DNA of 64,000 nucleotides from Anoxybacillus amylolyticus. GTDB lineage: Bacteria; Bacillota; Bacilli; Bacillales; Anoxybacillaceae. The notes below the pieces were generated by a model, which saw only the letters and a list, made by a program, of their open reading frames with translations, did no database searches and was not told the origin of the DNA. Shown in pieces: positions 18,529 to 62,280 of this stretch; within the stretch, counting starts at the first letter, position 1; each line of letters opens with the position of its first letter. The DNA lies in assembly GCF_001634285.1 (NCBI RefSeq), contig NZ_CP015438.1:1128001-1192000 (forward strand). The letters are read 5' to 3'. Position numbers and translations under genes: made by a program.

Positions 18529-18720
18529 TATAAATGCACATTGAAGTGTTAACATTTTTCGACTGTCGGGCGACCGAACAACACCGCTTCCAGACAAATG
18601 CATTTGTCTGTGAAGCGGTTGGTTGTTTGGTCCTCTGTCACGCGAAGGCGTGACAGAGGCAATCCTTTGGCTTGCCTCCGACAGTCAAAAAATAAGTTAA
18701 ACTCTCCAGTTGTATATATA
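18529..18720 (+). repeat. Repeat family A, copy 1
   Basis: About 192 bp. AT-rich inverted ends (TATAAATGCACATTGAAGTG ... CCAGTTGTATATATA), then GACTGTCGG closing with CCGACAGTC. Inside are three hairpins: a long arm ACCGAACAAC-A-CCGC ... GCGG-TTG-GTTGTTTGGT whose tip is CAGACAAATG/CATTTGTCTG; CTCTGTCACGC/GCGTGACAGAG; and GGCAA/TTGCC. No ORF. It lies between the tRNA and the nrd control region. Confidence 0.9.
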
Positions 18721-18965
18721 AGTTGAAATTTTGTTTTACATCCAGCTTACTACCTTCCACGTTATACCATATCAGCTCGTATTGAGATAAAAGCGGAAAC
18801 GAAAAATCGGAAATTCTTTATTGCAACTTATATAGATATGTATCCTATTATTATTTTTTGCTCATCGGCTGTGTACAAAGGGCAAGCTCATCTTCTTTTT
18901 TCGTAAAAAAACATAGTTGAAATTTCCGCTTTTTTCGTTTATGATGGAAAAAGTACAACTACGAA

Positions 18966-19012
18966 ATACAACATATTGTATTTTTATTTGTTAAGAAAAC
19001 TATATATAGTAA
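18966..19012 (+). promoter_or_regulatory. Paired NrdR boxes upstream of nrd operon
   Basis: ATACAACATATTGTAT (18966-18981) and AAACTATATATAGTAA (18997-19012) each match the NrdR-box consensus (ACACWATATAWWGTGT-like) at about 13 of 16 positions. Their starts are exactly 31 bases apart, the usual three-turn spacing of tandem NrdR boxes. A TTGTAT/TATATA promoter overlaps them. Confidence 0.7.
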
Positions 19013-19020
19013 GTAAGGAA

Positions 19021-19309
19021 GCCGCAAGCAATGGTGTCTGTTTGGACTTAATAGGGAATCTGGTGTGAATCCAGAACTGCCCCCGCAACTGTCAGTGCAG
19101 ACGAAATGGGAGTGCCACTGTATATGAAAGCTTTATCGGCGCGTATACGGGAAGGGACCAAAGTAGGAAGAAGCACGAGTCAGGAGACCTGCCTTGCTTG
19201 TTTCGTTTCACATTCTTCGGGGATGGAGAAGATGAAACGATGGCGAGAAGGGGAGGTTGCACCCTTTTTGTGCTGTCGTTTCATCCACTCGATCCAGAGT
19301 GGATTTTTT
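19021..19309 (+). promoter_or_regulatory. Adenosylcobalamin riboswitch with terminator before nrd
   Basis: Cobalamin aptamer (about 19021-19198) with GCCGCAAGCAATGG, GGGAATCTGGTGTGAATCC, AACTGCCCCCGCAACTG, GCCACTG, GGAAGAAGCACGAGTCAGG and AGACCTGCC. Expression platform: terminator ATCCACTC (19283-19290)/GAGTGGAT (19297-19304) with six T just before the nrd ribosome site. GATGAAACGA (19231-19240) can pair with TCGTTTCATC (19276-19285), opening the terminator, or with TCGTTTCA at 19203-19210, so a three-way switch is visible. Predicted: cobalamin turns nrd off. Confidence 0.93.
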
Positions 19310-19327
19310 ATTGGAGGAGGATATGCA

Positions 19328-21562
19328 GTGGCGGTGAAGACGATTTCGAAACAGGAGATTGCTACATTTGTTCGCGAATGGACGAACGATTTTCCGAACT
19401 TGGAAACAGAAAGTTATGTGGAGCGCATATTTCGCCATTGGCAGGCGAAACCGGATTGGTTGTTAGAAGAATTGATAGACGTTTTCATTTTGGAAGGGTT
19501 GGCTCGTATTAGCGAACAAGAGCCGGAGTGGACATTTGTTTGTGCTAATTTGTATTTACAAACCCTCTACAAGCAAGCTGCTAAGCAACGTCGGTATGAT
19601 CCGAGAGAGCGTTATGGTAATTTTTATGAGCTTATCACTTCGCTTGTCACGAAAGGAGTGTATGATCGTTCGCTACTTGACGATTATTCGAAAGAAGAAA
19701 TCGAGAAACTCGGGACACTGATTGATCCGGAAAAAGACAAGTTATTTACCTATATCGGATTACGCACGCTTGCAGATCGGTACCTTGCACGCGACTATGA
19801 ACGAAATCTTTACGAATTGCCGCAAGAACGGTTTTTAATTATCGCGATGGCGTTAATGGCGAAAGAGCCGCGTGAAAAGCGATTGTTGTTTATTAAAGAA
19901 GCGTATTGGGCGTTAAGTCATTTATACATGACGGTCGCCACTCCGACGCTAGCCAATGCGGGAAAAAGCTACGGGCAATTATCTAGCTGCTTTGTCGATA
20001 CTATTGACGATAGCTTGCAAGGGATTTATGACAGCAATACGGATATTGCTAACCTTTCGAAATCTGGCGGCGGAATAGGGGTGTATCTTGGCAAAATTCG
20101 CAGCCGCGGCAGCGATATTAAAGGATTTAAAGGCGTTTCCTCTGGCGTCATTCCATGGATGAAGCAGCTAAACAATACAGCTGTCAGCGTTGACCAACTT
20201 GGACAGCGGAAAGGAGCGATTTCCGTCTATTTAGACGTATGGCATAAAGATATATTTGCTTTTCTCGATGCGAAATTAAACAATGGTGACGAACGGTTGC
20301 GTACGCATGATTTATTTACTGGTGTTTGCATCCCTGACCTCTTTATGGAACAAGTGGAAACTAGAGGAGATTGGTATTTGTTTGACCCGCATGAAGTTCG
20401 CAAAGTGATGGGGTTTAGCTTAGAAGATTTTTACGACGAAGCAAAAGGAAGTGGCAGCTTCCGTGAAAAATATTGGCAGTGCGTATACGATGAGCGGCTT
20501 TCGAAAGAAAAAGTACCGGCGATTGAAATCATGAAAAGTATCATGCGCAGCCAATTAGAATCCGGTACGCCATTTATGTTTTACCGCGATGAAGTCAACC
20601 GAAAAAATCCGAACGCGCACGTTGGCATGATTTATTGCAGCAACCTTTGCACGGAGATTACACAAAACCAAAGCCCGACGGTGATGGAAACACAATATAC
20701 GAAAGATGGAAAAATTATCATTGAAAAAACGCCTGGGGACTTTGTTGTCTGCAATTTATCGTCTATTAATCTGGCACGTGCAGTGACGGATAACATACTA
20801 GAGCGATTAATTCCGATTCAAGTGCGGATGCTTGACAACGTTATTGATTTAAACCGAATCCCAGTGTTGCAAGCACAGCTGACGAACGAAAAATATCGGG
20901 CAGTCGGGCTTGGAACGTTTGGTTGGCATCACTTATTAGCATTAAAAGGAATTCGTTGGGAATCGAAAGAAGCAGTAGTTTATGCCGACGAGCTGTATGA
21001 AAAAATTGCCTATCTCACCATTCAAGCAAGCATGGAATTAGCGAAAGAAAAAGGGAGTTATCCAGCGTTTTGCGGCTCTGATTGGCAGACGGGCGCTTAT
21101 TTTACGAAGCGCGGATACGAGGCACCACATTGGCAAAACTTAAAAGAACAAGTGGCGCAACACGGGATGCGTAATGGATATGTATTGGCAGTTGCTCCGA
21201 ACGCATCGACCGCCATTATTGCCGGAAGCACCGCAAGCATCGACCCCATTTTTTTAAAAGTGTATGCGGAAGAAAAGAAAGATTATAAGATTCCTGTAAC
21301 GGTGCCAGATTTAAATGAACAAACGACGTGGTATTATAAATCGGCCTATCATATTGACCAACATTGGAGCATTCGGCAAAATGCTGCTCGGCAGCGCCAT
21401 ATCGACCAAGCAATTTCGTTTAACATGTATGTCATGCATACAATTAAGGCAAAAGAATTATTACATTTGCACTTGGACGCTTGGAAGTCAGGAATAAAAA
21501 CGACGTATTACGTCCGTTCTACCTCAAGCATTGTAGAAGAATGCGAATCATGCACAAGTTAA
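19328..21562 (+). CDS. nrdA: Class I ribonucleotide reductase, alpha subunit
   Basis: A 744-residue large subunit that reduces ribonucleoside diphosphates, using a radical supplied by the beta subunit. Visible: ATPTLANAGKSYGQLSSCFV with a catalytic-pair cysteine, NLSKSGGGIGVYLGKIRS, the central thiyl cysteine region YCSNLCTEITQ, CNLSSINLA with the other redox cysteine, APNASTAIIAGSTASIDP, and the C-terminal CESC redox pair. Start GTG at 19328 is seven bases after GGAGGAGG; the ORF reaching back to 19106 lies inside the riboswitch. Naming nrdA rather than nrdE is a choice from sequence style. Confidence 0.9.
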   Translation: MAVKTISKQEIATFVREWTNDFPNLETESYVERIFRHWQAKPDWLLEELIDVFILEGLARISEQEPEWTFVCANLYLQTLYKQAAKQRRYDPRERYGNFYELITSLVTKGVYDRSLLDDYSKEEIEKLGTLIDPEKDKLFTYIGLRTLADRYLARDYERNLYELPQERFLIIAMALMAKEPREKRLLFIKEAYWALSHLYMTVATPTLANAGKSYGQLSSCFVDTIDDSLQGIYDSNTDIANLSKSGGGIGVYLGKIRSRGSDIKGFKGVSSGVIPWMKQLNNTAVSVDQLGQRKGAISVYLDVWHKDIFAFLDAKLNNGDERLRTHDLFTGVCIPDLFMEQVETRGDWYLFDPHEVRKVMGFSLEDFYDEAKGSGSFREKYWQCVYDERLSKEKVPAIEIMKSIMRSQLESGTPFMFYRDEVNRKNPNAHVGMIYCSNLCTEITQNQSPTVMETQYTKDGKIIIEKTPGDFVVCNLSSINLARAVTDNILERLIPIQVRMLDNVIDLNRIPVLQAQLTNEKYRAVGLGTFGWHHLLALKGIRWESKEAVVYADELYEKIAYLTIQASMELAKEKGSYPAFCGSDWQTGAYFTKRGYEAPHWQNLKEQVAQHGMRNGYVLAVAPNASTAIIAGSTASIDPIFLKVYAEEKKDYKIPVTVPDLNEQTTWYYKSAYHIDQHWSIRQNAARQRHIDQAISFNMYVMHTIKAKELLHLHLDAWKSGIKTTYYVRSTSSIVEECESCTS

Positions 21563-21574
21563 GGGGGAAAAAGG

Positions 21575-22606
21575 ATGTTAGGGAGACGAGCAATTATGGA
21601 TGCCGAAGCGCCGAACCGTTCGACGCGCATTATTAACGGCAAATGTTCCAATGTATTAAATTGGGATGACATTGCATATCCTTGGGCATACGCGAAATAT
21701 AAGCGGATGCTTGCGAATTTTTGGACACCATTTGAAATTAATATGTCACAAGATGTGAAGCAATTTCCTCTGCTTACGGAACGCGAGCAAGAAGCATTTT
21801 TGAAAATTATCGGGCTGCTCGCCCTACTTGACAGCATTCAGACAGATTACGCCGGAAAAGTGGCTGACTACATCACTGATTCGAGTATTAACGCATTGAT
21901 GATTATGCTTGCCCAACAAGAGGTCATTCATAACCATTCGTATTCGTATGTGCTTTCAAGCCTTGTCCCGAAGCAAAAGCAAGAGGAAGTATTTGAATTT
22001 TGGCGGCACGAACCGACTTTGCGCAAGCGAAACGATTTTGTGACGAACGGATACCGAGCGTTTGTCGAACAACCGACCGTAGAAAACTTTTTACAATCAA
22101 TTGTTTATGACGTCATTTTAGAAGGGTTGTTTTTTTACTCCGGGTTCGCGTTTTTTTACAACTTGGCGCGCAATCAAAAAATGGTTGCTACAAGCACGAT
22201 GATTAATTATATTAACCGCGATGAACAGTTGCACGTCGATTTGTTTGTAAAAATTTTCAAGGAAGTGCTGCGCGAATATCCAGAATATGATACACCAGAA
22301 CTTGCCCATTTTGTGCAAGAAACGTTTAAAAGAGCAGCACAGCTCGAAATGGAATGGGCCGATGTTATTATTGGCAACAGCATGGATGGTATTCCGATTC
22401 AAGATTTGCATGACTACATAAAGTTTTATGCAAATGTCCGTTGTCATCAGCTCGGATTTGTACGTCCTTTTGAAGGATATCGCACCAATCCGCTTCGCTG
22501 GATTAAAGCGTACGAGGAAGTCGATTTAGGGAAATCGGACTTTTTTGAACAAAAATCGCGCCAATATACAAAAGTAAATGTCGATAACGGATTTGACGAG
22601 CTGTAA
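21575..22606 (+). CDS. nrdB: Class I ribonucleotide reductase, beta subunit
   Basis: A 343-residue di-iron radical subunit. Metal ligands and radical tyrosine can be placed: D in LLALLDSIQTD, E and H in QQEVIHNHSYSYV with Y seven residues after E, E in ILEGLFFYSGF, and E/H in NRDEQLHVDLF. The tyrosine is present, so the classic Y-radical type is expected. ATG at 21575 follows AAGGGGGAAAAAGG, 12 bases after nrdA; an ATG at 21596 also has a GGGAG site. It ends the operon, with no nrdI or thioredoxin gene attached. Confidence 0.92.
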   Translation: MLGRRAIMDAEAPNRSTRIINGKCSNVLNWDDIAYPWAYAKYKRMLANFWTPFEINMSQDVKQFPLLTEREQEAFLKIIGLLALLDSIQTDYAGKVADYITDSSINALMIMLAQQEVIHNHSYSYVLSSLVPKQKQEEVFEFWRHEPTLRKRNDFVTNGYRAFVEQPTVENFLQSIVYDVILEGLFFYSGFAFFYNLARNQKMVATSTMINYINRDEQLHVDLFVKIFKEVLREYPEYDTPELAHFVQETFKRAAQLEMEWADVIIGNSMDGIPIQDLHDYIKFYANVRCHQLGFVRPFEGYRTNPLRWIKAYEEVDLGKSDFFEQKSRQYTKVNVDNGFDEL

Positions 22607-22710
22607 ATTCTTATTTCAAAAAATGGATTTTTATGCCAAAATCACCTATTCACGAACGGTTTTTCCTGCGAAGGCAGGAAGCGAAGCTGAGTCATATAGG
22701 TTCTCATTCA

Positions 22711-22749
22711 AAAAGACGGATCATCGTAATGCTGAGCCGTCTTTTTGTT
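22711..22749 (+). terminator. Terminator of the nrd operon
   Basis: AAAAGACGG (22711-22719) pairs with CCGTCTTTTT (22737-22746), followed by GTTTTG. Confidence 0.82.
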
Positions 22750-22810
22750 TTGGGACGAGGAGTTTTTATTTCCACCATGTGATTCGTTTGTGTCACTGTA
22801 TTTCCTTTGG

Positions 22811-23458
22811 TTAAGTCATGGGGCGGTGTATTTTTCTTTCCTCATCACGAATGGTTCCATCTTGCACATATAAAATGCGATCTCCTAATTTTTTAGCTTC
22901 TTCGTACTGATGCGTGACTAGTATAATTGGGATGCGCCACCGTTCGTGGATACGTAATAATTCCTCATGACTTTTTGACCTTGTTTGGTTATCTAAAGCA
23001 GAAAATGGCTCGTCTAAAAGCAAGGCATCTGGCTCGGTAGCAATTGCCCGTATCATAGCGACTCGCTGTTTTTCGCCACCTGAAATTTCCACTGGATATT
23101 TTTCACTAAGTTGTTCAATTTGTAGTTCCTTCATTAATTCTTTTGCCAAGCGTTCGTTTTTCATACCATAAGCAATGTTTTTCCAAACCGTCATATGTGG
23201 AAAGAGCGCATAGTCTTGAAACACATAGCCGATATTTCTTTTATGTATAGGAACAACTATTTTTTTATTGTCGAATAACACCGTATTATTTAGTTGGATG
23301 GTACCAGTAGTAGGTTTACTTATTCCGGCAATACAATGTAAAATTGTCGTTTTTCCAGAACCGGAAGGTCCAAAAAGAACAACGATCTCGTTAGCTACGG
23401 AAAATTTTACGTTTAATTCAAAATGAGAGAGTTTTTTTTGGATATCGACGGTAAGCAT
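22811..23458 (-). CDS. modC: Molybdate ABC transporter ATP-binding protein, short form
   Basis: A 215-residue ATPase. Walker A GPSGSGKTTILHCIAG, Q-loop YVFQDYALFPHMTVWKNIAY, signature EISGGEKQRVAMIRAIA, Walker B ALLLDEPFSALD, H-loop ILVTHQYEEA. It is about 140 residues shorter than typical ModC and lacks the C-terminal molybdate-binding TOBE domain. It lies 39 bases downstream of modB. Specificity (molybdate, possibly tungstate or sulfate) is inferred from the modA and modB neighbours. Confidence 0.85.
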   Translation of the reverse strand: MLTVDIQKKLSHFELNVKFSVANEIVVLFGPSGSGKTTILHCIAGISKPTTGTIQLNNTVLFDNKKIVVPIHKRNIGYVFQDYALFPHMTVWKNIAYGMKNERLAKELMKELQIEQLSEKYPVEISGGEKQRVAMIRAIATEPDALLLDEPFSALDNQTRSKSHEELLRIHERWRIPIILVTHQYEEAKKLGDRILYVQDGTIRDEERKIHRPMT

Positions 23459-23497
23459 GAGGCCGCCCCCTTTGCGTACGCAAATAAACTATCACGT

Positions 23498-24181
23498 TTA
23501 TTTTGGTACATGTTTCATTATATTTTTTTTGCTCCACCAATTCAGCCACAAAATAGCGCTAAACCCTAGGCAAACAATAATGATCGTCCAAAATTTTGCT
23601 ACTTGCATATTCCCTGATTCCACTGCAAAATAGATAGCTAAAGGAATGGTGTCAGTGACATTCGGAATATAGCCGGCGAGCATGAGCGTGGCACCAAATT
23701 CCCCAAGCGCTCGAGCGAACGATAAAACTAAGCCAGCTAACAGACCCGGCCATGCAAGCGGAAAGGATATCGTCCAAAACACTTTCCATTTAGATGCGCC
23801 CAGCGTATAAGCAGCATTTTCAATATTTAGGTCATATTGTTGGAAGGCTGCAGCTGCACTTTGATACATTAAGGGAAAGGATACGACGACGGATGCAATA
23901 AGAACACCGTACCAAGTGAAAGCGACTTGGAAACCAAACAAGTCAAAGAGTAATCGACCGATAAACCCGTTTTTTCCGAATACATATAATAAACCAAAAC
24001 CGACAACGGTAGGAGGAAGTACGAGTGGCAATAAAATGATCGCTTCTATAATACTTTTCCCACTAAAGGAACTGCGGCTGATCCATCTTGCTAATACAAC
24101 TCCAGTAATAAATACAATAAGCGTTGCGATTGTAGCAGTTTTAAAGGAAAGGATAAGCGGAGAATAATTCATATGGTTCAT
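23498..24181 (-). CDS. modB: Molybdate ABC transporter permease
   Basis: A 227-residue permease with about five membrane segments and the ModB EAA loop (AAYTLGASKWKVFWTISFPL at about residue 121-140). Also LPLVLPPTVVGFGLLYVFGK and FARALGEFGATLMLAGYIP, conserved in molybdate and sulfate permeases. Start ATG at 24181 follows AAAAAGGTGA. Forms an operon with modC, divergent from modA across a 350-bp gap. Confidence 0.88.
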   Translation of the reverse strand: MNHMNYSPLILSFKTATIATLIVFITGVVLARWISRSSFSGKSIIEAIILLPLVLPPTVVGFGLLYVFGKNGFIGRLLFDLFGFQVAFTWYGVLIASVVVSFPLMYQSAAAAFQQYDLNIENAAYTLGASKWKVFWTISFPLAWPGLLAGLVLSFARALGEFGATLMLAGYIPNVTDTIPLAIYFAVESGNMQVAKFWTIIIVCLGFSAILWLNWWSKKNIMKHVPK

Positions 24182-24363
24182 TCACCTTTTTAACATTCAG
24201 TTATTTTTATAAACTTTATAGGAAGCATAATGATAAAATGAAAGATAAGCGATTTGAGACAGATGTATCTTTTTATCCGAATCATTCATTTACCATTAAA
24301 TATAAATCATCCTATTGAGGTTATCAATATATTATACAAAACTGCATTTATATAGCATGCTCT

Positions 24364-24423
24364 CCTCGAACAAGAACGCTTTGCGGGTAAATGTTATTTG
24401 CCTGTCGGCGTTCTTGTTCGAGG
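24364..24423. repeat. Perfect 16-bp inverted repeat in the modB-modA gap
   Basis: CCTCGAACAAGAACGC (24364-24379) pairs exactly with GCGTTCTTGTTCGAGG (24408-24423). The inner GGGTAAAT/ATTTGCC can extend it. It lacks a T-run on either strand and sits in the 350-bp gap between the divergent modB and modA genes, closer to modA. The rest of the gap is AT-rich and shows nothing else I can name. Confidence 0.7.
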
Positions 24424-24530
24424 GAAAAGGCAGAAAAGCTTGTGTTCAGCCATAGGATTCTATGTTTTTTAGTAAAATAATGGATAATCGGCACTCTTGA
24501 AAATCAATAGTTAAAGAAAGGAAGATAACG

Positions 24531-25328
24531 ATGAAACCTGTTATTCGCATCACAATGAGTGTGTTTTTGTGTGTCTCGCTCCTCTTTATGTTCGGATGTA
24601 CCAATGAAGAGAAAAAACAGGAATCGAAGCAAACTGTAGAACTAACTATCTCGGCAGCATCTAGTTTACAAAATGCACTGACAGAAATTCAAAAAAGATA
24701 TGAAAAAGACCACAAAAATATAAAATTAGTATTTAACTTTGGAAGTTCCGGTGCATTGCAACAGCAAATCGAACAAGGAGCGCCAGTAGATTTATTTTTC
24801 TCGGCTGCTGAAAATAAATTTCGCCCGCTCGTAGACAAAGGATTAATTAACAAAGAAGAAAGTAAAAATTTGTTAGGAAACGAACTCGTGTTAATTGTTC
24901 CGAAAGATAAAGGGAATACGATAAAAGGATTTCAATCTTTAACAGACAATAGCATCAAGCAAATTGCTATTGGCAATCCTGAGACAACTCCTGCAGGTCA
25001 GTATGGGAAACAAGTCTTAACGAAGTTAAATCTTTGGGAAAAAGTAAACGGAAAAATCGTATATACAAAGGATGTGCGCCAAGTATTACTGTATGTAGAA
25101 ACAAATGCAGTAGATGCAGGAATTGTCTTCAAAACGGATGCCCAAATATCTAATAAGGTAAAAGTTGTCGACATAGCAGCTGCTAATATGCATGCTCCTA
25201 TTATTTATCCAATTGGTATCATTAAGAATACAAAGCATAAAAAAGAGGCTACAGATTTCTATCAATATATACAGACAAAAGATTCTCTCCAAGTTTTTGA
25301 GAAATACGGATTTCAGATTTTAAAGTAA
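24531..25328 (+). CDS. modA: Molybdate-binding lipoprotein
   Basis: A 265-residue extracellular binding lipoprotein. Signal peptide with lipobox MFGC at residues 20-23. ModA motifs follow: LTISAASSLQNALTEIQKRY (oxyanion Ser), NFGSSGALQQQIEQGAPVDL, FSAAENKF, IAIGNPETTPAGQYGKQVL and VDAGIVFKTDA. ATG at 24531 follows AAAGGAAGATAACG. It is transcribed away from modB-modC; a terminator lies at 25486. Confidence 0.9.
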   Translation: MKPVIRITMSVFLCVSLLFMFGCTNEEKKQESKQTVELTISAASSLQNALTEIQKRYEKDHKNIKLVFNFGSSGALQQQIEQGAPVDLFFSAAENKFRPLVDKGLINKEESKNLLGNELVLIVPKDKGNTIKGFQSLTDNSIKQIAIGNPETTPAGQYGKQVLTKLNLWEKVNGKIVYTKDVRQVLLYVETNAVDAGIVFKTDAQISNKVKVVDIAAANMHAPIIYPIGIIKNTKHKKEATDFYQYIQTKDSLQVFEKYGFQILK

Positions 25329-25359
25329 GTAATGAGTCGTGTTGATTAATCAATAGAAA

Positions 25360-25485
25360 AGCGGAGATAGTTTTTCTTCTTCAAGCCTTTCCGTGACAGA
25401 GAACTGAACGACTAACCGCTTCTGGGCTCAGTCACAAAATACCCAGTACCCCATAGACATTGAAAAGAGGGAAGTTTCCAGTTGC
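25360..25485 (-). repeat. Repeat family A, degenerate fragment
   Basis: Read on the minus strand, CCCAGAAGCGGTTAGTCGTT, then TTCTCTGTCACG and AAGGCTTG follow the order of the A-family arm 1 tip, arm 2 and arm 3. The inverted ends are lost or changed. It lies after modA. Confidence 0.55.
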
Positions 25486-25526
25486 ATAGGCGTTCTTTCT
25501 CTATGGAAAGAAACGCCTATTTTTTT
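25486..25526 (+). terminator. Terminator downstream of modA
   Basis: ATAGGCGTTCTTTC (25486-25499) pairs with GAAAGAAACGCCTAT (25506-25520), one bulge, followed by six T. It overlaps the ansR stop codon and is directional for the plus strand. Confidence 0.82.
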
Positions 25527-25843
25527 GCCATCTCCCGTTTGATTCGAATGAAGGCAATGAGTTGATGAATTTCGTCTTCTGTTAAACGCTCCCCATCGAC
25601 GGTAATCGAAACGGATGTGTTCGTCAGTTCAATCGTTTGTTGTTCATCATCGACGACGCCAAGCAAGTAATCCGTCGACGTGGCAAATAACGTGGCGAGT
25701 TCTTTTACAGCTTCTAACGACGGCTGGCGGTAGCCGGATTCATAGCCGGCGTATGTGCTTTTGGCGATGTTTAATTGATCGGCGATATATTGCAATGACC
25801 ATTTTTTCTTTTTTCTTAACTCCGACAATCGTTTTGCAATCAT
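25517..25843 (-). CDS. ansR: HTH (Xre-type) regulator, probable AnsR
   Basis: A 108-residue protein. N-terminal Xre helix-turn-helix at residues 1-62 (RLSELRKKKKWSLQYIADQL, STYAGYESGYRQPSLEAVKE, DYLLG); the C-terminal 40 residues are a short acidic and basic tail. It is divergent from ansA, as B. subtilis ansR is from ansAB, so it is likely the asparagine-utilisation repressor. ATG at 25843 follows GAGGGAGAG. Name rests on context. Confidence 0.7.
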   Translation of the reverse strand: MIAKRLSELRKKKKWSLQYIADQLNIAKSTYAGYESGYRQPSLEAVKELATLFATSTDYLLGVVDDEQQTIELTNTSVSITVDGERLTEDEIHQLIAFIRIKREMAKK

Positions 25844-25876
25844 CGTTTTCTCTCCCTCTCATGCTCATCACTGAAT

Positions 25877-25956
25877 GTTCGCGAAACGAATAAAAACACT
25901 TGTTATTTTCTTTTTTTCTGAATATAATTGAAACATATATACGCGAATCGCGAACA
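25877..25956. promoter_or_regulatory. Possible AnsR operators in ansR-ansA gap
   Basis: The 9-mer TGTTCGCGA occurs on the plus strand at 25877-25885 and on the minus strand at about 25956-25948. The second lies in the palindrome CGCGAATCGCG just upstream of a TATAAT (25965-25970), where a repressor would cover the ansA promoter -35 region. Confidence 0.4.
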
Positions 25957-26027
25957 ACTTTACTTATAATGTACAATACATCACGTAAAAAATACAATAG
26001 ATTATTTATCACCACGAGGTGACGATG

Positions 26028-27038
26028 ATGAAAAACATTTTGTTATTAGCGACAGGAGGCACGATTGCTTCTGTTCCAAGTGAAGAAGGACTGACGCCGA
26101 AGCTGACGGCAGAACAATTAACAGGCTACATCACAATCGAAAACCAGCCGTATCGGTTAGACAGCCAAATTTTAATGAACATCGACAGCACGAATATGCA
26201 GCCGGAGCATTGGCGCGAGATTGCCGAGGCCATTTATCAAAACTACGACAACTATGACGGATTTGTCGTTACGCACGGAACAGATACGATGGCATATACA
26301 GCGGCTGCGTTGTCGTATATGCTCCAACACGGCAATAAACCGATCGTGTTGACCGGTTCGCAAGTGCCGATCGGCTTTGAAAAAACGGATGCGAAAAAAA
26401 ATATACGCGATGCGCTTCGTTTTGCTTGCGAAAACATCGGCGGCGTCTTCGTCGTATTCGATGGGCGCGTCATTTTAGGTACAAGAGCGGTAAAAATGCG
26501 GACGAAAAGTTACGACGCGTTTGAAAGCATTAACCATCCGTACGTCGCTTATATTCATAAAGACCGCATCGACTATCAATGCGAGCTAGAAACGACGCAT
26601 GAGCAGCTACAATTTGATCCGTCGCTTTGCCCCGATGTGTTTTTATTAAAACTTCATCCAGGCACGAAGCCGGAAATCTTCGATTACATTCGTCACTTAT
26701 ATCGCGGGGTGATCATCGAAAGCTTCGGTAGCGGCGGTGTACCGTTTCAAGGGCGCAATTTGTTGCCAAAAATAAAAGAGCTCATTGATGATGGAATGGC
26801 AGTTGTCATTACGACGCAATGTTTAGAAGAAGGAGAAGATTTAACATTATATGAAGTTGGGCGGAAAGTGGCGCAAAATACCGTCATTTTATCAGGCGAT
26901 ATGAATACGGAAGCGATCGTGCCGAAGCTCATGTGGGCGTTAGGAAAAACGACGAATTTGCTTGACATTAAAGCGATCATGGAAACGCCAATTGCCAATG
27001 ACATTACGCCAAAACAAGAAGAAAGTTGGGATGCGTAA
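26028..27038 (+). CDS. ansA: Type I L-asparaginase
   Basis: A 336-residue cytoplasmic asparaginase converting asparagine to aspartate and ammonia. Both catalytic-threonine motifs are intact: [15 protein letters not shown] at the start and [20 protein letters not shown] at about residue 80; [12 protein letters not shown] and [13 protein letters not shown] follow. ATG at 26028 is chosen because GAGGTG is six bases ahead; GTG 26019 lies in that site. Its partner gene ansB follows at once but is broken. Confidence 0.93.
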
Positions 27039-27358
27039 ATGATGCAAACAAAAGCAGTACGAATGGAACGCGATTTTCTTGGCGAAAAAGAAATTCCAGC
27101 TGACGCGTATTACGGCATTCAAACGATGCGCGCAGTCGAAAATTTCCCGATTACCGGCTACCGTTTGCACCGGGAGCTTATCCAAGCGATGGCGACTGTG
27201 AAAAAAGCAGCAGCACTCGCGAATATGGAAACTGGTCAACTCGATCGGCGCATCGGTGAAGCGATTGTGAAAGCGGCCAAAGAAATCATCGGAGGACGAT
27301 GGCACGACCAGTAGGGGGCACGGGCACGTCAATCAATATGAACAGGAACGAAGTGATC
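27039..27358 (+). pseudogene. ansB: Truncated aspartate ammonia-lyase gene
   Basis: The first 90 codons encode a good aspartase N-terminus (VRMERDFLGEKEIPADAYYG, IQTMRAVENFPITGYRL). After GGRWHDQ a TAG stop occurs. Shifting frame, the conserved GGTGTSINMNRNEVI is still readable to about 27358; a short deletion removed the FxVDPxQ part between them. Beyond that the roughly 370 C-terminal residues are absent and unrelated sequence follows. The product would lack all catalytic regions. Confidence 0.88.
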
Positions 27359-27426
27359 GTTCATGTCTTCTTTTTTGCTGAAATTGCTCATCTATAGTAT
27401 ATTTTAGTGAAAAAGGAGACTGAGTC

Positions 27427-27876
27427 ATGAATTTGCCCCGTTTCGTTATCAAGGGAAGTGTCGCCGGCGTGATTTCTGGCGTCATACTCGGCCTGTTTTT
27501 AAAAACGATTGAAATACGTTGGAACATCAACGTGTATACGCTGCTGTTAAATGTCGATTATATTCCTGTTTTCAACCGATTTTCGTTTTCGGAAATGGTC
27601 GAGTTCTCTTTTCACCTGATTATATCGGTCATTTTAGCGACGATTCTTTTATACGTTGCCACAAAGCACCAATGGACGCGTCAGCAAATGATGGTACGTA
27701 CGATCGGAATTTCTCTTTTCATTGGCCTTGTTCTTTATCCAACAACCGCCTTGTCGGAGCGGACACCTCCATTGACTTCTGTTCCTGCGTTGTTTTGCTG
27801 GCTGTTTGGACATTTGTTATATGGAGTGGCGCTAAGCTTGTTTTACTGGGATAAGAACGAGACGCAAGCGATTTGA
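27427..27876 (+). CDS. Small membrane protein of unknown function
   Basis: A 149-residue protein with about four membrane segments (GVISGVILGLFLKTIE, FSFHLIISVILATILLYVAT, TIGISLFIGLVLYPTTAL, ALFCWLFGHLLYGVALSLFY). It resembles the YagU/DUF1440-like small membrane proteins but I am not sure. ATG at 27427 follows AAAAGGAGACTGAGTC. It is 11 bases before the next gene and likely co-transcribed with it. Confidence 0.7.
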   Translation: MNLPRFVIKGSVAGVISGVILGLFLKTIEIRWNINVYTLLLNVDYIPVFNRFSFSEMVEFSFHLIISVILATILLYVATKHQWTRQQMMVRTIGISLFIGLVLYPTTALSERTPPLTSVPALFCWLFGHLLYGVALSLFYWDKNETQAI

Positions 27877-27886
27877 AGGTAAGGAA

Positions 27887-28882
27887 ATGGAATTGGTAGA
27901 GAGGATGGGAGCGATGCCACGTTTTGCGACACCTGTTGTCGTTGTAAGCGAATGTTTAGGATTTGCGCCTTGCCGTTATAACGGAGATCAACTCGAAGAT
28001 GAAACGGTTCGTAAACTCGTACCATTTGTGCGTTTTATTCCTGTTTGTCCTGAAATGCAAATCGGTCTCGGAACTCCACGGGAAACGATTCGTCTTGTGA
28101 TGACGGAGTCAGGTGTACGACTCGTGCAGCCGTCCACAGGGATCGATTGGACGGAAGTGATGAATGGTTTTTCTGCTGCTTTTTTACATAAACTGCGAGA
28201 TGTAGATGGATTTATTTTGAAAAGCCGCTCGCCTTCTTGCGGAATGAAAGATGTGAAAATTTACCGAAATGAACAAAAAGGACCGACTGCTGGGAAGGGA
28301 AGCGGCTTGTTTGCCGAACAAGTGTTGATGATGTTTCCGCATAAAGCGATCGAAGAAGAGGGGAGGCTTACGAATTTTTCCATTCGTGAGCATTTTTTGA
28401 CAAAATTATTTACGCTTGCGCTATTTCGGGAAGTAAAGCAAACGAAATCGCATCACCAACTTGTCGAATTTCATGCAGAACATAAATATTTGTTCATGGC
28501 GTACCATCAAAAAAAATTGAAAGAACTTGGTAACACGGTTGCGAATCGAGAACGGCTGCCAATCGATGAAGTGTTTTCACGTTATGAACAAATATTGTGC
28601 GAACTATTCGCGAAACGTTCCCGACGAAAAGCAAACATAAACGTTTGCCAACATATGATGGGGTATTTTAAACATGAACTGTCTACTGAAGAAAAGCACT
28701 ACTTCGAACAGTTGTTATCGAAATATCGTGATGGGAAGCTGCCGCTAAGCAGTGTGACAAGTGTGATTAAATCATGGGCGGTTCGCTATAAAAATGAGTA
28801 TTTGTTGAAACAGCGTTATTTTGAACCCTACCCGGAGGAACTAATAGATATAACAGATTCTGGGAAAGGAAGGGATTATTGA
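27887..28882 (+). CDS. DUF523 (TudS-like) plus DUF1722 fusion protein
   Basis: A 331-residue two-domain protein. The N-terminal half is DUF523, the thiouracil desulfurase TudS type: cysteines in SECLGFAPCRYNG, VCPEMQIGLGTPRETIRLV and LKSRSPSCGMKDV, the three-cysteine set that holds an Fe-S cluster in TudS. The C-terminal half (from about residue 165) is DUF1722 (YbgA): LVEFHAEHKYLFMAYHQKKL and VCQHMMGYFKHELS. The start is unclear: ATG 27887, 27905 or 27914 (before PRFATPVVVV). Substrate unknown. Confidence 0.8.
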   Translation: MELVERMGAMPRFATPVVVVSECLGFAPCRYNGDQLEDETVRKLVPFVRFIPVCPEMQIGLGTPRETIRLVMTESGVRLVQPSTGIDWTEVMNGFSAAFLHKLRDVDGFILKSRSPSCGMKDVKIYRNEQKGPTAGKGSGLFAEQVLMMFPHKAIEEEGRLTNFSIREHFLTKLFTLALFREVKQTKSHHQLVEFHAEHKYLFMAYHQKKLKELGNTVANRERLPIDEVFSRYEQILCELFAKRSRRKANINVCQHMMGYFKHELSTEEKHYFEQLLSKYRDGKLPLSSVTSVIKSWAVRYKNEYLLKQRYFEPYPEELIDITDSGKGRDY

Positions 28883-29242
28883 ACAATAGATAGCGTTTGT
28901 CAACGTATGTGCGATAGCTGGCACCGACGCCTGTCGAAAAACTGCCGGCAAAAAATGCAGTTGAATTTTCCATCATTTTATCATAGCGGCCGAGAAGACT
29001 CACACTTTGAAGCGTCGAGTAAGTGGGGATGAATCGGTCGGTTTTGGTTTGAAAAACACCTTTGAATGACAAGGGTGTTTTTCTTTTGACCATCTTTCCT
29101 CATAAAATTATGGCCACTCATATTTTCTTAGATGAAGCAGGATCATTTTCGTTTGCGATAAGGAAATAATTGTCCGCTTCCGAAACGAAAAAAGAGAAAA
29201 AAGTATCCCAAAAGATCTTTTTCAAGTTCATCAGCTGCATGT
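28883..29242. other. Gene-poor stretch with decayed coding traces
   Basis: No intact gene. On the minus strand 28890-29040 reads as an open, protein-like stretch (TDRFIPTYSTLQSVSLLGRY ... FAGSFSTGVGASYRTYVDKR) without a credible start or end, possibly a gene remnant. A terminator lies at 29052-29088. Confidence 0.4.
29052..29088 (+). terminator. Rho-independent terminator
   Basis: AAAAACACC (29052-29060) pairs with GGGTGTTTTT (29073-29082), followed by CTTTTG. The gene it served is not intact, unless read-through from the TudS-like gene ends here. Confidence 0.65.
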
Positions 29243-29400
29243 TATATATAGATGCAATTTGGAACTTTAACGTTTTCATCTTTTATGGAGTAGGTATTTT
29301 TCGACTGTTCGGTTCTCTGTCACGCGAATGCGTGACGCAGGAAAGCCTTTGGCTGGTCTCCGACAGTCGAAAAAATAAGTTAAACTCCCTAGTTATAATC
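29243..29400 (+). repeat. Repeat family A, copy 2 (lacks arm 1)
   Basis: Starts TATATAGATGCAATTTGG and ends with CGACAGTCGAAAAAATAAGT then TTAAACTCCCTAGTTATAA. Arm 1 is missing: CGACTG joins directly to TTCGGTTCTCTG. Arm 2 (CTGTCACGC/GCGTGACGCAG) and a small arm 3 (AGCC/GGCT) remain. Lies downstream of the LysR gene. Confidence 0.85.
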
Positions 29401-29518
29401 GGAAAGATAGAAAGTAATACAATTTTCGGAGAGAGGGGAAAGATTGGCGGTAACTTAGCCGACCATTTGCCCCTTTTTGCCGCTTTTATTAAATCCAGCA
29501 CAAATGCGGCTTTTGCCA

Positions 29519-30424
29519 TTATTGCTTTGCTAAGCTGTTTGCCGAAGTTCTATGCTTCCGTAAAATGTCTAAAAACACTTCCATCGCTTTTGTATAAAAC
29601 GGGGTTTTTTGAGTGATAAAGGAAAATTGGCGAAAAAAAGGCTGGTCATCAATATGTATCAGTTTCAATGTCCCAAAAGAAAGCTCTTTTCTTACTGTCC
29701 ATTGTGAAAGGAATGTAATGCCCAAGCCGGCTTCCACCACTTCTTTAATCAGCTGTGTACTGCCAAATTCCATGATATCGTGCGGAAAAAAGTTATATTT
29801 TGAAAACAATTTGTCGGTTGCTTTCCTTGTTCCAGACCCCGTTTCGCGAACGATCCATGTTTCGCTGCGAAGATCATCAATAGACACCCTTTTCTTTTTT
29901 GCATACGGATGGTTAGCAGAAGCGATGATAAACATTTGGTCTTCGGCAAACGGTTCGATATAAACATCTTTCATCTCAATGTCCATTTCGATAATCCCGA
30001 CATCCAATTGATGGTTGCTCACCATTTCTACAATTTCATTCGAATTTCCGATGGTGATGGCCGGTTTAATTAATGGGTACTGTTTATGCAACTCGGCCAT
30101 AATATGGGGAAGGATATACTCGCCGTAAGTATAGCTGGCGCCGATGGACAGCGCTCCGCTGGCGTGGTTCATTAAGTCATCGATCAAATGGTTCATGCGA
30201 GTATAAAGCCCTAATATTTCTTTCGCATGATGGTAAACAATTTTTCCAGCTTTATTAAGTTTTACGTACTTGTTGTTTCGCTCTAGCAATTTTGTTCCCA
30301 TTAGGCGCTCCAATGTTTGGATATGCTGGCTCACCGCCGGCTGTGTCATGTGTAATTCTTCGGCAGCGCGTGTAAAATTTTTCTTTTCCGCCACTTTGAC
30401 AAACACGTGCAATAATTGATCCAA
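29519..30424 (-). CDS. LysR family transcriptional regulator (CysL/YeiE-like)
   Basis: A 301-residue LysR regulator. The winged HTH occupies residues 1-60 (NFTRAAEELHMTQPAVSQHI QTLE region) and the co-inducer domain follows from about residue 88 (GALSIGASYTYGEYILPHIM, QLDVGIIEMDI). The domain is closest in memory to the CysL/CbbR/YeiE branch, which respond to sulfur or anions. The expected divergent target is not next to it. Start ATG 30424 has GAGGGAACG upstream. Target unknown. Confidence 0.85.
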   Translation of the reverse strand: MDQLLHVFVKVAEKKNFTRAAEELHMTQPAVSQHIQTLERLMGTKLLERNNKYVKLNKAGKIVYHHAKEILGLYTRMNHLIDDLMNHASGALSIGASYTYGEYILPHIMAELHKQYPLIKPAITIGNSNEIVEMVSNHQLDVGIIEMDIEMKDVYIEPFAEDQMFIIASANHPYAKKKRVSIDDLRSETWIVRETGSGTRKATDKLFSKYNFFPHDIMEFGSTQLIKEVVEAGLGITFLSQWTVRKELSFGTLKLIHIDDQPFFRQFSFITQKTPFYTKAMEVFLDILRKHRTSANSLAKQ

Positions 30425-30578
30425 TACGTTCCCTCCAGTAATTATTCATAATAATTATCATTAATATTATAATCATTTATTTTGCTTATATTAAAGAAAG
30501 TTGATGGATTAAAATTAATGACAATGATAAAACTCCCGATGGTGGACAAAAACACATAAAGGCTGGTATTGTTTACGG

Positions 30579-31361: not shown

Positions 31362-31557
31362 TATATAAATGCACATTGAAGTGTTAACACTTTTCGACTG
31401 TCGGGCGACCGAACAACACCGCTCCCAGACAAATGAATTTGTCTGGGAGGCGGCTCGTTGTTCGGTTCTCTGTCACGCGAACGCGTGACGCAGGCAAGCC
31501 TTTCGCTTGCCTCTGACAGTCGAAAAAATAAGTGAAACTCCCAAGTTGCATGTATAT
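31362..31557 (+). repeat. Repeat family A, copy 3
   Basis: 196 bp, the best-formed copy. Ends TATATAAATGCAC ... TGCATGTATATA. Closing stem CGACTGTC/GACAGTCG. Arm 1: ACCGAACAAC, CCGC, TCCCAGACAAAT / ATTTGTCTGGGA, GCGG, GTTGTTCGGT, all pairing. Arm 2: GTCACGCG/CGCGTGAC. Arm 3: GGCAAGC/GCTTGCC. It ends 33 bases before the malic enzyme ATG, so it is probably in that gene's leader or promoter region. Confidence 0.92.
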
Positions 31558-37349: not shown

Positions 37350-37423
37350 CTTTCGCTTTTCCCTTGAAGTAGGCAAATCGTTTTGCCCGCTGGCGTTCAT
37401 TCGATACTTGTGGTTCGCTATCA

Positions 37424-37745
37424 TACAACTGGGGAGTTTACCTTCATTTTTTTCGACTGTCGAGGCAAGCTTATGGCTTGCCTTCGTCATGCTTTGGCGT
37501 GCAGAGGACCGCACCACCAGCCGCTTCCTAGACAAATTCATTTGTCTAGGAGCGGTGTTGTTCAAAGATAGGAAAGCATAGAATTTTGCAATTGGGCAGA
37601 GAGCTGTCTAGTTCCACGCGCCACCTTCTTTCGGCGGCTAAGCCTCCTCGGTGGGGCTTGTGCGCTATTCGCCGATAGACAGGCGCTTTGCGCTTTTCTT
37701 AGGTCGCGCGACAGTCGAAAAATTAAAGCTTCAACGTGGATTTAC
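37424..37745 (-). repeat. Repeat family A, copy 5, interrupted by repeat B
   Basis: Reverse orientation. ACAACTGGGGAGTTTACC and TCGACTGTCG are the right end of A; arm 3 is GGCAAGC/GGCTTGCC, arm 2 is decayed, arm 1 tip is CCGCTTCCTAGACAAAT / ATTTGTCTAGGAGCGG. After GGTGTTGTTC about 136 bp of repeat B intervene, and A resumes with GGTCGCGCGACAGTCG and TTCAACGTGGATTTA. Confidence 0.85.
37571..37706 (+). repeat. Repeat family B, copy 1, inserted in repeat A
   Basis: Shares with the copy at 57086: TTTTGCAATTGGGCAGAGAG then CTGTCTAGTTCCACGCGCCA near its start and GGGGCTTGTGCGCT, GATAGACAGGCGCTTTGCGC, TTTTCTTA near its end. No ORF. It splits an A-family copy, which shows that it inserted after A. 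Confidence 0.75.
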
Positions 37746-55109: not shown

Positions 55110-55195
55110 CAGGATTGCTCTTTTTTCGACGATCGGAAACAAGGCAAAGACTTGCTTTCGTGTGGCAGAGAACCGAATAGTTGAAAACTTCATTT
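55110..55195 (-). repeat. Repeat family A, degenerate fragment
   Basis: On the minus strand CTATTCGGTTCTCTGCCACA, CGAAAGCAAG, TTTCCGATCGTCGAAAAAAG matches the right half of copy 2 (29307-29382) with several changes. Directly after pstA. Confidence 0.65.
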
Positions 55196-57085: not shown

Positions 57086-57291
57086 ACACTCGTGTTTTGC
57101 GATTGGATAGAGAGCTTTCTAGCTCCAAGCGCCATCGGTGTGATGCGCTCCGCCCCTTCTTGCGGCGGCGACACACTGAGTTCGCTTCTTTGACATATCC
57201 CACGCAAGCCCAAGCTTTGCTTGGGCGGATCCTCTTCGATGGGGCTTGTGCGCTCTTCACGGATAGGCGGGAGCTTTGCGTTTTTCTTACT
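57086..57291 (+). repeat. Repeat family B, copy 2
   Basis: About 200 bp. Outer pairing AGCTCC and CGCC (57119-57133) with GGCG and GGAGCT (57266-57276), internal hairpin GCCCAAGC/GCTTGGGC. Shares TTTTGCGATTGG, AGAGAGCT, TCTAGCTCCAAGCGCCA, GGGGCTTGTGCGCT and TTTGCGTTTTTCTTA with the copy at 37571. It lies upstream of the LacI-type regulator. Confidence 0.75.
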
Positions 57292-60673: not shown

Positions 60674-60738
60674 TAACAAGGAAGATTTTCTCTTCCTTGT
60701 TATATATAAATTATTCCATATAAAGGGGAGATAGCAAA

Positions 60739-62004
60739 ATGAAAAAATGGTTGGCTATTAGTATGTCGACTATGTTATTTGGAAGCGCTTTAGCAGGTTG
60801 CAGCAGCGGAGGTGAAAAAACGACAGAAAAAGAAACAGGAGGGAAAAAAGAAGAAAAAGTAGAAGTGACGCTTGCTGGTTGGGGAGGAAATCCGACAGAA
60901 CAAAAGCTATTGCAACAAACATTAGATGAGTTTCAAAACAAATACCCGAACATTAAAGTAAAATATGAAGTCATTTCTGACCAATATATGGATGTCATTA
61001 AAACACGGCTAGTTGGTGGGGAAGGACCAGATGTATTTTATCTCGATGCGTTTGAAGCGCCGGCATTAATTAAAACAGGAGCGCTTGAGCCGCTAGACAA
61101 ATATGTTACAGATGATTTTGATATCAATGATTTTGAAAAACCACTGCTTGATGCGTTTAAAGGAGAAGATGGAAAAATTTACGGATTCCCGAAAGACTAT
61201 TCGACACTCGCGCTTTTCTATAATAAAAAAATGTTTCAAGAAGCAGGGGTAGAAGTACCGAAAACATGGGATGAATTACGGGAAGTAGCGAAAAAACTAA
61301 CGAAAGGCACACAAGTATATGGCTTCGGGGTGGCGCCAGAATTAGCGCGCTTATACTACATTGCGGAATCAAAAGGTGGGAAAGTAGTTACAGATAACAA
61401 AGCAAGTTTTGCTGATCCGAAAGTAGTCGAAGCGCTTCAACCGATCGTTGATATGCATTTGAAAGATAAATCAGCTGCTCAGCCGAGCGAAGTTGGTGCA
61501 AACTGGGGCGGTGAAATGTTCGGGCAAGGAAAAGCGGCCATGGTCATTGAAGGGAACTGGGCAATCCCGTTCTTAAAAGATACGTTCCCGAATTTAGAAT
61601 ACGGAACAGCAGAAATCCCAACAATCAATGGAAAAAAAGCAACGATGGCATATACTGTTGCATATGTGATGAACAAAAATTCACAGAAGAAGGAAGCTGC
61701 TTGGAAATTGCTCTCGTTCTTAACTGGAAAAGAGGGAATGAAGATTTGGACGAGCAAAGGATTGGCGTTACCGACGCGCAAATCGGTAGCAGCTGAGTTA
61801 GGATTTGATAAAGATCCGTTGCGCGGTCCGATTGTTGCTGGTGCTTCTTATGCAACGGTATGGCAAAACGGGACGAACTTGCCAATTATTACAAATAACT
61901 TTAACAACCAATTTGTCAGCGCCTTTTTAGGACAGCGTCCACTAGCAGATGCATTGAAAGAAGCACAAGAAACAGCGAACAAAGAAATTGAAGGGAATAA
62001 ATAA
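60739..62004 (+). CDS. Sugar ABC transporter solute-binding lipoprotein (MalE-like)
   Basis: A 421-residue extracellular lipoprotein with lipobox LAGC at residues 17-20, then a Lys/Glu/Gly linker and a family-1 binding protein (VTLAGWGGNPTEQKLLQQTL, GGEGPDVFYLDAFEAPALIK, GEMFGQGKAAMVIEGNW). Likely ligand is an alpha-glucan oligosaccharide because of the debranching enzyme ahead. ATG 60739 follows AAGGGGAGA. The permeases follow after 340 bases holding a hairpin and repeat A. Confidence 0.9.
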   Translation: MKKWLAISMSTMLFGSALAGCSSGGEKTTEKETGGKKEEKVEVTLAGWGGNPTEQKLLQQTLDEFQNKYPNIKVKYEVISDQYMDVIKTRLVGGEGPDVFYLDAFEAPALIKTGALEPLDKYVTDDFDINDFEKPLLDAFKGEDGKIYGFPKDYSTLALFYNKKMFQEAGVEVPKTWDELREVAKKLTKGTQVYGFGVAPELARLYYIAESKGGKVVTDNKASFADPKVVEALQPIVDMHLKDKSAAQPSEVGANWGGEMFGQGKAAMVIEGNWAIPFLKDTFPNLEYGTAEIPTINGKKATMAYTVAYVMNKNSQKKEAAWKLLSFLTGKEGMKIWTSKGLALPTRKSVAAELGFDKDPLRGPIVAGASYATVWQNGTNLPIITNNFNNQFVSAFLGQRPLADALKEAQETANKEIEGNK

Positions 62005-62011
62005 TGACAGC

Positions 62012-62040
62012 GCTGATAGAAGAATTCTCCTTCTATCAGC
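62012..62040 (+). terminator. Hairpin directly after the binding-protein gene
   Basis: Perfect 11-bp stem GCTGATAGAAG (62012-62022) with CTTCTATCAGC (62030-62040) followed by TTTAGC. The short T-run suggests a partial terminator or an mRNA 3'-end stabiliser. Confidence 0.6.
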
Positions 62041-62068
62041 TTTAGCATTAAGCGGTTCCCTCCTTTCT

Positions 62069-62280
62069 ATATAAATGAACATTGGAGGGTTAACATTTTG
62101 CGACTGTCGGGAGACCGAACAACACCGCTGGGGCTGACCCAAAACGCGAATGCGTTTTGGTCAGCCTCAGGCGGCTCGTTGTTCGGTTCTCTGTCACGCG
62201 AACGCGTGACAGAGGCAGGACTTTGGCTCACCTCCGACAGTCGAAAAAATAAGTGAAACTCCTCAGTTGCATGTATATAG
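62069..62280 (+). repeat. Repeat family A, copy 4, between malE- and malF-like genes
   Basis: 212 bp. Ends TATATAAATGAACATT ... GTTGCATGTATATA. Closing stem CGACTGTCGG/CCGACAGTCG. Arm 1 keeps ACCGAACAAC-A-CCGC / GCGG-CTC-GTTGTTCGGT, but its tip is a different stem: GGCTGACCCAAAACGC with GCGTTTTGGTCAGCC. Arm 2 TCTGTCACGCG/CGCGTGACAGA; arm 3 is weak. Same strand as the operon. Confidence 0.92.

What the first reader, a model, noticed from the sequence alone, without database searches (positions are those of the whole stretch)
18529..62280. A family of three-armed, structure-conserved repeats (family A)
Seen directly: copies at 18529-18720, 29243-29400, 31362-31557, 62069-62280, an interrupted reverse copy at 37424-37745 and decayed pieces at 25360-25485 and 55110-55195. 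Intact copies share AT-rich inverted ends (TATATAAATGCA-type), a GACTGTC/GACAGTC closing stem and three hairpins, like a cloverleaf. The pairing is kept while sequence changes: the arm 1 tip is TCCCAGACAAAT/ATTTGTCTGGGA at 31 kb, TCCTAGACAAAT/ATTTGTCTAGGA at 37 kb (a C:G to T:A double change), and an unrelated stem GGCTGACCCAAAACGC/GCGTTTTGGTCAGCC at 62 kb. No ORF is present. They could be MITE-like elements, REP-like mRNA elements, or a structured RNA with a job. I do not know a described family that matches.
Basis: partly seen in the sequence, partly recalled or inferred. Interest (0 to 1): 0.75.

Follow-up and report, generated by a model that had tools for sequence, protein, structure and literature searches.

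The report
Transposon-borne three-armed palindromic repeat
These repeats are small mobile DNA elements, apparently moved by the transposase of a larger relative, and their folded three-armed middle also turns up inside unrelated kinds of mobile elements, which suggests the middle has a history of its own.

Summary
Family A is a non-autonomous element of about 193 bp. Its 26-bp ends (TATAnATGCA...TTAAC) resemble those of IS630-family insertion sequences in the same genome and in relatives. It duplicates a TA target: two Anoxybacillus relatives carry the empty site of the 31-kb copy. Matches lie at 37 places in this genome, and 34 of 41 genomes of the family have matches. The three-armed core covaries strongly (43 of 55 pairs changed on both sides across classes). 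Overall, G·T and A·C mismatches are rare and balanced, though subgroups lean opposite ways, and orientation to genes is near random. This argues against a one-strand RNA gene and for folding kept at the DNA level or needed on both strands. The surprise is that a homologous core also sits in two MITE classes with unrelated ends and other target duplications: 9 bp (same genome) and 8 bp (other families of the order). One genome has all three end types. The core thus behaves as a module that changes transposon ends. What it does is inferred, not shown; armless copies exist. The eight paper searches listed no account of such a module.

The parts
31364..31556 (+). intact family A element, 193 bp, ends TATAAATGCA...TGCATGTATA; TA duplications at 31362-31363 and 31557-31558
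   Evidence: (empty sites in G012 and G013)
31391..31526 (+). three-armed core of the 31-kb copy (closing stem, long arm 1, arms 2 and 3)
   Evidence: R2, E 6.6e-33; fold
18529..18720 (+). family A copy; no target TA before its left end; core at 18556-18691
29245..29400 (+). family A copy without arm 1; older left end TATAGATGCAA, young right end; left part shared at the same site by G012 and G013
37422..37745 (-). family A copy, reverse, broken by another repeat between arm 1 and the left end
62070..62277 (+). family A copy, 208 bp, with longer alternative arm-1 tip; TA at 62068-62069 and 62278-62279
24286..24494 (-). class C copy (GTGTTGATTA-type end at 24478-24494), damaged; three-armed design, different ends
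25339..25485 (+). decayed piece, best read as class C (end GTGTTGATTAATCAATA at 25339-25355, arm-1 remnant 25381-25422)
   Evidence: weak
55110..55195 (-). decayed core remnant
   Evidence: 72% identity, E 2.9e-8; E 0.016; weak

Best explanation
Family A is a MITE of the IS630/Tc1-mariner type. Transposase from resident IS630 copies recognises its 26-bp ends and inserts it at TA, mostly after C and often before G, duplicating the TA (ends, duplication and one empty site shown; action in trans inferred). Between the ends lies a module of about 130 bp: a closing stem with T-runs at its base, a long arm with the tip GnCAAAT/ATTTGnC, and two short arms. A homologous module sits in at least two other MITE classes with 8-bp and 9-bp duplications, hence moved by other transposases, so it has passed between sets of ends. 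Its pairing is kept in Watson-Crick form with no overall strand preference. I think it most likely acts as folded DNA (cruciform or single-strand hairpins) that closes the middle and brings the two ends together, or otherwise helps a very short element transpose or be tolerated, whichever transposase is used (inference, about 0.4). The alternatives are no function, with palindromes kept neat by template switching and spread by hitchhiking (about 0.35), and a transcript structure needed on both strands (about 0.2). The confidence below is for the MITE/IS630 part plus the shared module, not for the role of the core.
For: Empty site: G012 (Anoxybacillus sp. J5B_2022) and G013 (A. tepidamans DSM 16325; both identified by matching contig lengths) read GAC-TA-ACAGC and GAC-TA-AACAGC where the window has GAC-TA-[193 bp]-TA-ACAGC. 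Of 26 own-genome loci scanned, 21 have both ends with TA outside (the TA was required by the script); 17 of 21 have C before it, 12 of 21 G after it; the preference of IS630 for CTAG is known to me here only as a cited title. Own genome: 16 DDE_3 hits, 8 full IS630 copies of 1187-1189 bp flanked by TA, with ends such as TATACATCCAAATTGACATTTTAACC / TATACATGCACTTTAAAGCAATGACT; NCBIfam IS630. IS630 in a relative: TATAAATGCACCTTGAAAAGTTAACT, 22 of 26 with the MITE left end, 0 of 20000 shuffles. Shared module: class C, 9-bp duplication perfect in 7 of 14 loci with both ends found (22 examined); class E, 8-bp duplication perfect in 18 of 24 (28 examined). G170 holds an A-type right end (L151; its left end is disrupted), C-type ends (L245, perfect 9-bp duplication) and E-type ends (12 loci read, ends found by script in 9) around homologous cores. 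Sampled G170 E-type cores (3) are nearer A cores (mean identity 0.69) than the E cores of g72 (0.61). Covariation: 11 pairs vs 5.9 shuffled, 1 of 500; 43 of 55 vs 24.4; 226 cells vs 59.8; 0 of 500. G·T 125 vs A·C 129; 31 vs 33.
Against: Armless forms exist (A: L061-L063, 93 and 95 bp where measured; C: L343, L344, with the same 9 bases on both sides of L343 by eye), so the core is not required for insertion unless it was lost afterwards. End matching is not fully specific: the right end of A matches group 1 IS630 ends at 15-19 of 26 (weakest 185 of 20000 shuffles), and one end of the second own IS630 group matches the A left end at 18 of 26 (14 of 20000); the g3 right end matches group 1 at only 14-17. 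The wobble balance hides opposite leanings: genus g1 rows G·T 68 vs A·C 27, other rows 57 vs 102, although counted by pair position neither is significant (13 vs 16, p 0.71; 9 vs 20, p 0.06). In own-genome family A alone, 10 of 12 copies between tandem genes lie opposite to the genes; the whole sample is 27 opposite, 22 same (p 0.57). Alignments A2-A4 were fitted to a model and lean towards the structure. No autonomous partner was found for class C; for class E only one ISL3 with similar GGnTCT ends and an 8-bp duplication. Tree support for end exchange is moderate (0.78).
Confidence: 0.82

Rival explanations
1. The core has no function. Long imperfect palindromes are corrected by template switching during replication, which makes paired changes without selection; the cores spread because MITEs nest in one another and recombine.
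For: G·T and A·C balance overall; nesting is seen directly (class C inserted in the left end of a family A copy with duplication TAAATGCAC, L144); A/C hybrids and microhomology deletions read by eye (L024, L061-L064); armless copies exist.
Against: The same three-arm order, the tip GnCAAAT/ATTTGnC and a core of about 130 nt are seen in genomes of six families outside the own family and with three end classes, although loss is easy.
Confidence: 0.35
2. The element is a regulatory RNA module: when co-transcribed it folds and affects mRNA stability, as proposed for ERIC, NEMIS and BOX. It must fold on both strands because it lands in either orientation, which disfavours G·U.
For: Very stable folds; copies between tandem genes are common (49 of 81 classified); precedents in PMC3049150 and PMC2229807 (passages read); own-genome family A is 10 to 2 opposite to tandem genes.
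Against: No overall orientation preference, no Rfam match on a copy, no expression data here.
Confidence: 0.2
3. A stand-alone structured non-coding RNA gene with a one-strand function.
For: Significant covariation.
Against: Mobile with TA duplication; G·T equals A·C overall; near-random orientation overall.
Confidence: 0.04

Closest known systems
RUP of Streptococcus pneumoniae (107-bp repeat proposed to move by IS630-Spn1; PMC3049150 and PMC2229807, passages read)
   Same: short, no ORF reported, inverted ends like those of a resident IS630, TA target, intergenic, high copy, folded
   Different: described in those passages as a simple repeat whose ends pair; here there is a three-armed core of about 130 bp, and the core is shared with MITEs that have other ends and duplications. 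Sequences were not compared
Other bacterial MITEs with TA ends (Correia/NEMIS, ERIC; PMC2229807, passages read)
   Same: size, TA motif at ends, stable pairing of the ends
   Different: that review describes the other repeats as a stem loop without arms (CIR excepted); no core shared between transposase classes is mentioned in the passages read
BOX elements of S. pneumoniae (PMC3049150, passages read)
   Same: modular repeat proposed to be moved by an IS with similar ends, extensive secondary structure
   Different: BOX is built of boxA, boxB and boxC modules with one kind of ends; here one core is found with several kinds of ends
bcr1 of the Bacillus cereus group (recalled; only search listings seen)
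   Same: mobile repeat of about 150 bp in Bacillales (recalled)
   Different: not compared by sequence here

Membership tests
MITE (non-autonomous DNA transposon) | short, no transposase or other ORF | tested here: met
   17 of 21 measured copies are 191-194 bp; no ORF of 90 aa or more inside the 18-, 31-, 37- and 62-kb copies
MITE (non-autonomous DNA transposon) | terminal inverted repeats | tested here: met
   TATAAATGCACATTGAAGTGTTAAC / TATACATGCAACTGGGGAGTTTAAC, imperfect
MITE (non-autonomous DNA transposon) | target-site duplication shown by an empty site | tested here: met
   TA, at one site (31 kb) in two relatives; 18-kb site not alignable; 29-kb site filled in the relatives; 37- and 62-kb sites not searched
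IS630-mobilised MITE | ends match an IS630 of the same genome | tested here: met
   group 1 own ends: 18-20 of 26 with the left end, 15-19 with the right; best elsewhere 22; controls: second own group 15-18 and 11-14, third type 12 and 13
IS630-mobilised MITE | mobilised in trans by that transposase | not testable with these tools
   needs a transposition assay
RUP | 107-bp pneumococcal sequence with IS630-Spn1 ends | not tested
   not compared by sequence; differs in host, reported length and core shape from the passages read
Rfam RNA families | match to a curated covariance model | tested here: not met
   Searches (whole window, gathering score; 18400-37900, E up to 1): no match overlaps a copy
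one-strand structured RNA | G·U pairs in excess over A·C on the functional strand | tested here: not met
   125 vs 129 overall, 31 vs 33; subgroups 68 vs 27 and 57 vs 102, opposite ways
ISL3-type MITE (class E) | 8-bp duplication and ISL3-like ends | tested here: inconclusive
   18 of 24 perfect 8-bp duplications; one of four ISL3 loci tested had GGnTCT ends and an 8-bp duplication, similarity short

The most novel reading that the evidence does not exclude
The three-armed palindromic core is itself the evolving unit: a selfish folded-DNA module that has moved between the ends of at least three transposon classes (IS630-type, an 8-bp-duplication class and a 9-bp-duplication class) across Bacillales, because its fold helps any very short element bring its ends together or escape counter-selection.
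Probability: 0.3. Interest if true: 0.8.

Novelty: new variant of a known kind. Interest (0 to 1): 0.56.

Why it matters
MITEs are usually described as shortened or imitated copies of one transposon, with an interior of no consequence. Here the interior is the conserved part, while the ends and target duplications differ between classes. That makes it possible to ask directly, with armed and armless elements of the same ends, what a folded middle does for a transposon too short to bend. It also warns that covariation alone does not prove an RNA: mobile palindromes can give strong covariation without a one-strand wobble signature.

Tried and rejected
Rfam: no match on a copy. Exact right-end pattern in genome contigs: 0 hits. 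Phage records: no match; plasmids: one, Geobacillus kaustophilus HTA426 NC_006509.1, 69% of the query at 80%. The first orientation count used a faulty strand test for family A and was replaced; the strand of three class C loci (L135, L136, L144) was taken from a neighbouring family A copy, so three copies count twice. The first class E duplication count used a bad pattern and was replaced. No autonomous partner for class C among own-genome end matches: end pairs about 1.57 kb apart at 810023-811601 and 2246441-2248010 were read by eye as insertions inside class C copies. Empty sites: 31 kb found; 18 kb not alignable; 29 kb filled; 37 and 62 kb not searched. Match counts of the models include reverse-strand matches of the same copies and so overstate copy number; the 37 places are merged by eye from the 65 pieces. 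Phylum search: 1 of 398 genomes, the own one; searches of more than 40 genomes use stricter filters that lose weak matches. Literature: the titles and abstracts listed by searches (several lists capped) showed no three-armed MITE core and not this repeat; most subscription papers are not held. PMC2267715: no occurrence of Geobacillus or MITE (term search). PMC8024623: 4 IS630 listed for G. kaustophilus, no occurrence of MITE (passages).

Full report
What is there. The window lies in a 3.16-Mb genome of three contigs, in a genus that includes Anoxybacillus tepidamans (G013, identified by matching contig lengths). BLAST with the 31-kb copy gave 65 matching pieces in the genome. I merged these by eye to 37 places, of which 19 (L001-L019) cover nearly the whole query at 89-100% identity; two of the 19 lie on the 65-kb contig C3 and one on the 258-kb contig C2.

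Ends and insertion. Family A runs from TATAAATGCACATTGAAGTGTTAAC to the complement of TATACATGCAACTGGGGAGTTTAAC. For the 31-kb copy, G012 and G013 hold the site without the element: GAC-TA-ACAGC and GAC-TA-AACAGC, where the window has GAC-TA-[193 bp]-TA-ACAGC. So a TA is duplicated. This is one site only. Of 26 own-genome loci scanned, 21 had both ends with TA outside (the script required the TA); 17 of these 21 have C before the TA, 12 have G after it, and 17 are 191-194 bp long. Insertion of IS630-family elements at TA with a two-base duplication is described in PMC2170065 (passages read), whose reference list cites the preference of IS630 for CTAG by title. At 29 kb the relatives hold a related element at the same site, so some copies are old.

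The partner. The genome has 16 DDE_3 transposase matches. One group has 8 full copies of 1187-1189 bp, flanked by TA, with ends such as TATACATCCAAATTGACATTTTAACC and TATACATGCACTTTAAAGCAATGACT. Its two reading frames match NCBIfam IS630, one above and one below the curated cut-off (151 and 92 bits, cut-off 100). IS630 copies in relatives have TATAAATGCACCTTGAAAAGTTAACT and TATACATGCAACATGAAGAGTTAACT. The left MITE end agrees with these group 1 type ends at 18-22 of 26 positions and the right at 15-19; the best pairs have 0 of 20000 shuffles as good, the weakest 185. As controls, the second own IS630 group reaches 15-18 (left) and 11-14 (right), and a third type 12 and 13; so one control end is as close to the left end as the poorest group 1 end. 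That these transposases move the MITE is inferred.

The core. On 31 copies, 11 of 55 pairs have changes on both sides (shuffled mean 5.9, 1 of 500 as high), and 37 cells against 11.8. Across classes (27 sequences), 43 of 55 pairs and 226 cells against 24.4 and 59.8, 0 of 500 shuffles. A4 was fitted to the model and so leans towards it, but the slid controls fall to 14-19 pairs. Changes go mostly from one Watson-Crick pair to another. G·T and A·C mismatches are balanced: 125 and 129 among 4705 cells of 86 rows (46 of 132 rows dropped as duplicates or under 70% paired; reverse-strand matches fall among them), and 31 and 33 among 1436 cells. The balance is of the whole set: genus g1 rows have 68 and 27, the other rows 57 and 102, though by pair position neither lean is significant (p 0.71 and 0.06). 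A one-strand RNA should favour G·U on its strand in every group; this does not. The result fits DNA-level folding, or folding needed on both strands, or correction by template switching.

The core is shared by other elements. A model built only from family A finds the same order of arms in elements with other ends. Class C (own genome, 16 best loci) has GTGTTGATTA-type ends and a 9-bp duplication, perfect in 7 and 8 of 9 in 3 of the 14 loci whose ends were found (22 examined). Class E (other families of the order) has GGCTnTTTTC...TTGTTGC ends and an 8-bp duplication, perfect in 18 and 7 of 8 in 3 of 24 (28 examined). G170 carries an A-type right end (L151, left end disrupted), a C-type element with a perfect 9-bp duplication (L245), and E-type elements (L161, L173-L183; ends found by script in 9 of these 12). 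Most of its E-type elements keep the A-type closing stem TTTTCGACTGTC, and three sampled cores are nearer to A (mean identity 0.69) than to the E cores of another genus (0.61); tree support for this is moderate, 0.78. G040 has cores with ends like those of the second own IS630 group (read by eye). In one own-genome locus a class C element sits inside the left end of a family A copy with duplication TAAATGCAC (L144), so nesting, one route for exchanging ends, is seen directly.

Range. Matches are found in 34 of 41 genomes of the family, in 24 of 397 of the order, of which 10 lie outside the family, in six other families, and in 1 of 398 of the phylum, the own genome. Counts per genome include reverse-strand matches of the same copy.

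Does the core matter for moving? Armless or partly armed copies exist in A (L061-L064) and C (L343, L344, L346); L343 has TTAGCATAT on both sides (by eye). So the core is not strictly needed, or can be lost afterwards by short homologies. Orientation to neighbouring genes: 27 opposite, 22 same among 49 tandem cases, with 19 convergent and 13 divergent, of 98 loci listed (17 unusable, three copies counted twice). Own-genome family A alone is 10 to 2 opposite, which I take as chance or recent amplification but cannot exclude as a bias.

Literature. RUP with IS630-Spn1 (PMC3049150; PMC2229807; passages read) is the closest described system. The lists of eight searches showed no account of this repeat or of a core shared between MITE classes; lists were capped and the library lacks most subscription journals, so absence is weak evidence.

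Verdict. An IS630-type MITE, ordinary in how it moves, carrying an unusual three-armed core that is also found in transposons with other ends. Novelty: a new variant of a known kind. The role of the core is open.

Noticed in passing
window 18712-18838: A further small repeat abuts the 18-kb copy: ends TATAAGTTG... and ...CAACTTATA, many copies in relatives, resembling the ends of a third IS630 type TATAAGTTGAATTAAAG.
   Followed up: partly
window 37563-37690; L020, L067: The repeat that interrupts the 37-kb copy (GGGCAGAGAGCTGTCTAG...) breaks family A copies in a similar way at two other loci and has pieces at 57095-57134 and 57231-57289; it may be a further subfamily or a site-preferring insertion.
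   Followed up: no
L024 (C1:352750), L066 (C1:539630-540137): Hybrids between family A and class C arms (by eye), suggesting recombination through the shared arm sequences.
   Followed up: no
L152, L153, L155, L247, L249, L250: The closing stem starts with TTTT in most classes and the long-arm tip mostly keeps CAAAT/ATTTG while the rest of the arm changes; a protein-binding site or a folding constraint could explain it.
   Followed up: no
own genome C1:810023-811601 and 2246441-2248010: Class C copies that seem split by an inserted element of about 1.3 kb with GGTTCATCACCAAAAG-type ends (by eye).
   Followed up: no
L343, L344: Two armless class C copies share the same deletion junction (CATAyGGCAGAAAA), so a short class C form may itself be mobile.
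   Followed up: partly
A2 rows, genus g1 versus other genomes: G·T exceeds A·C in g1 rows (68 vs 27) and the reverse holds elsewhere (57 vs 102); probably a few fixed positions, not resolved.
   Followed up: no
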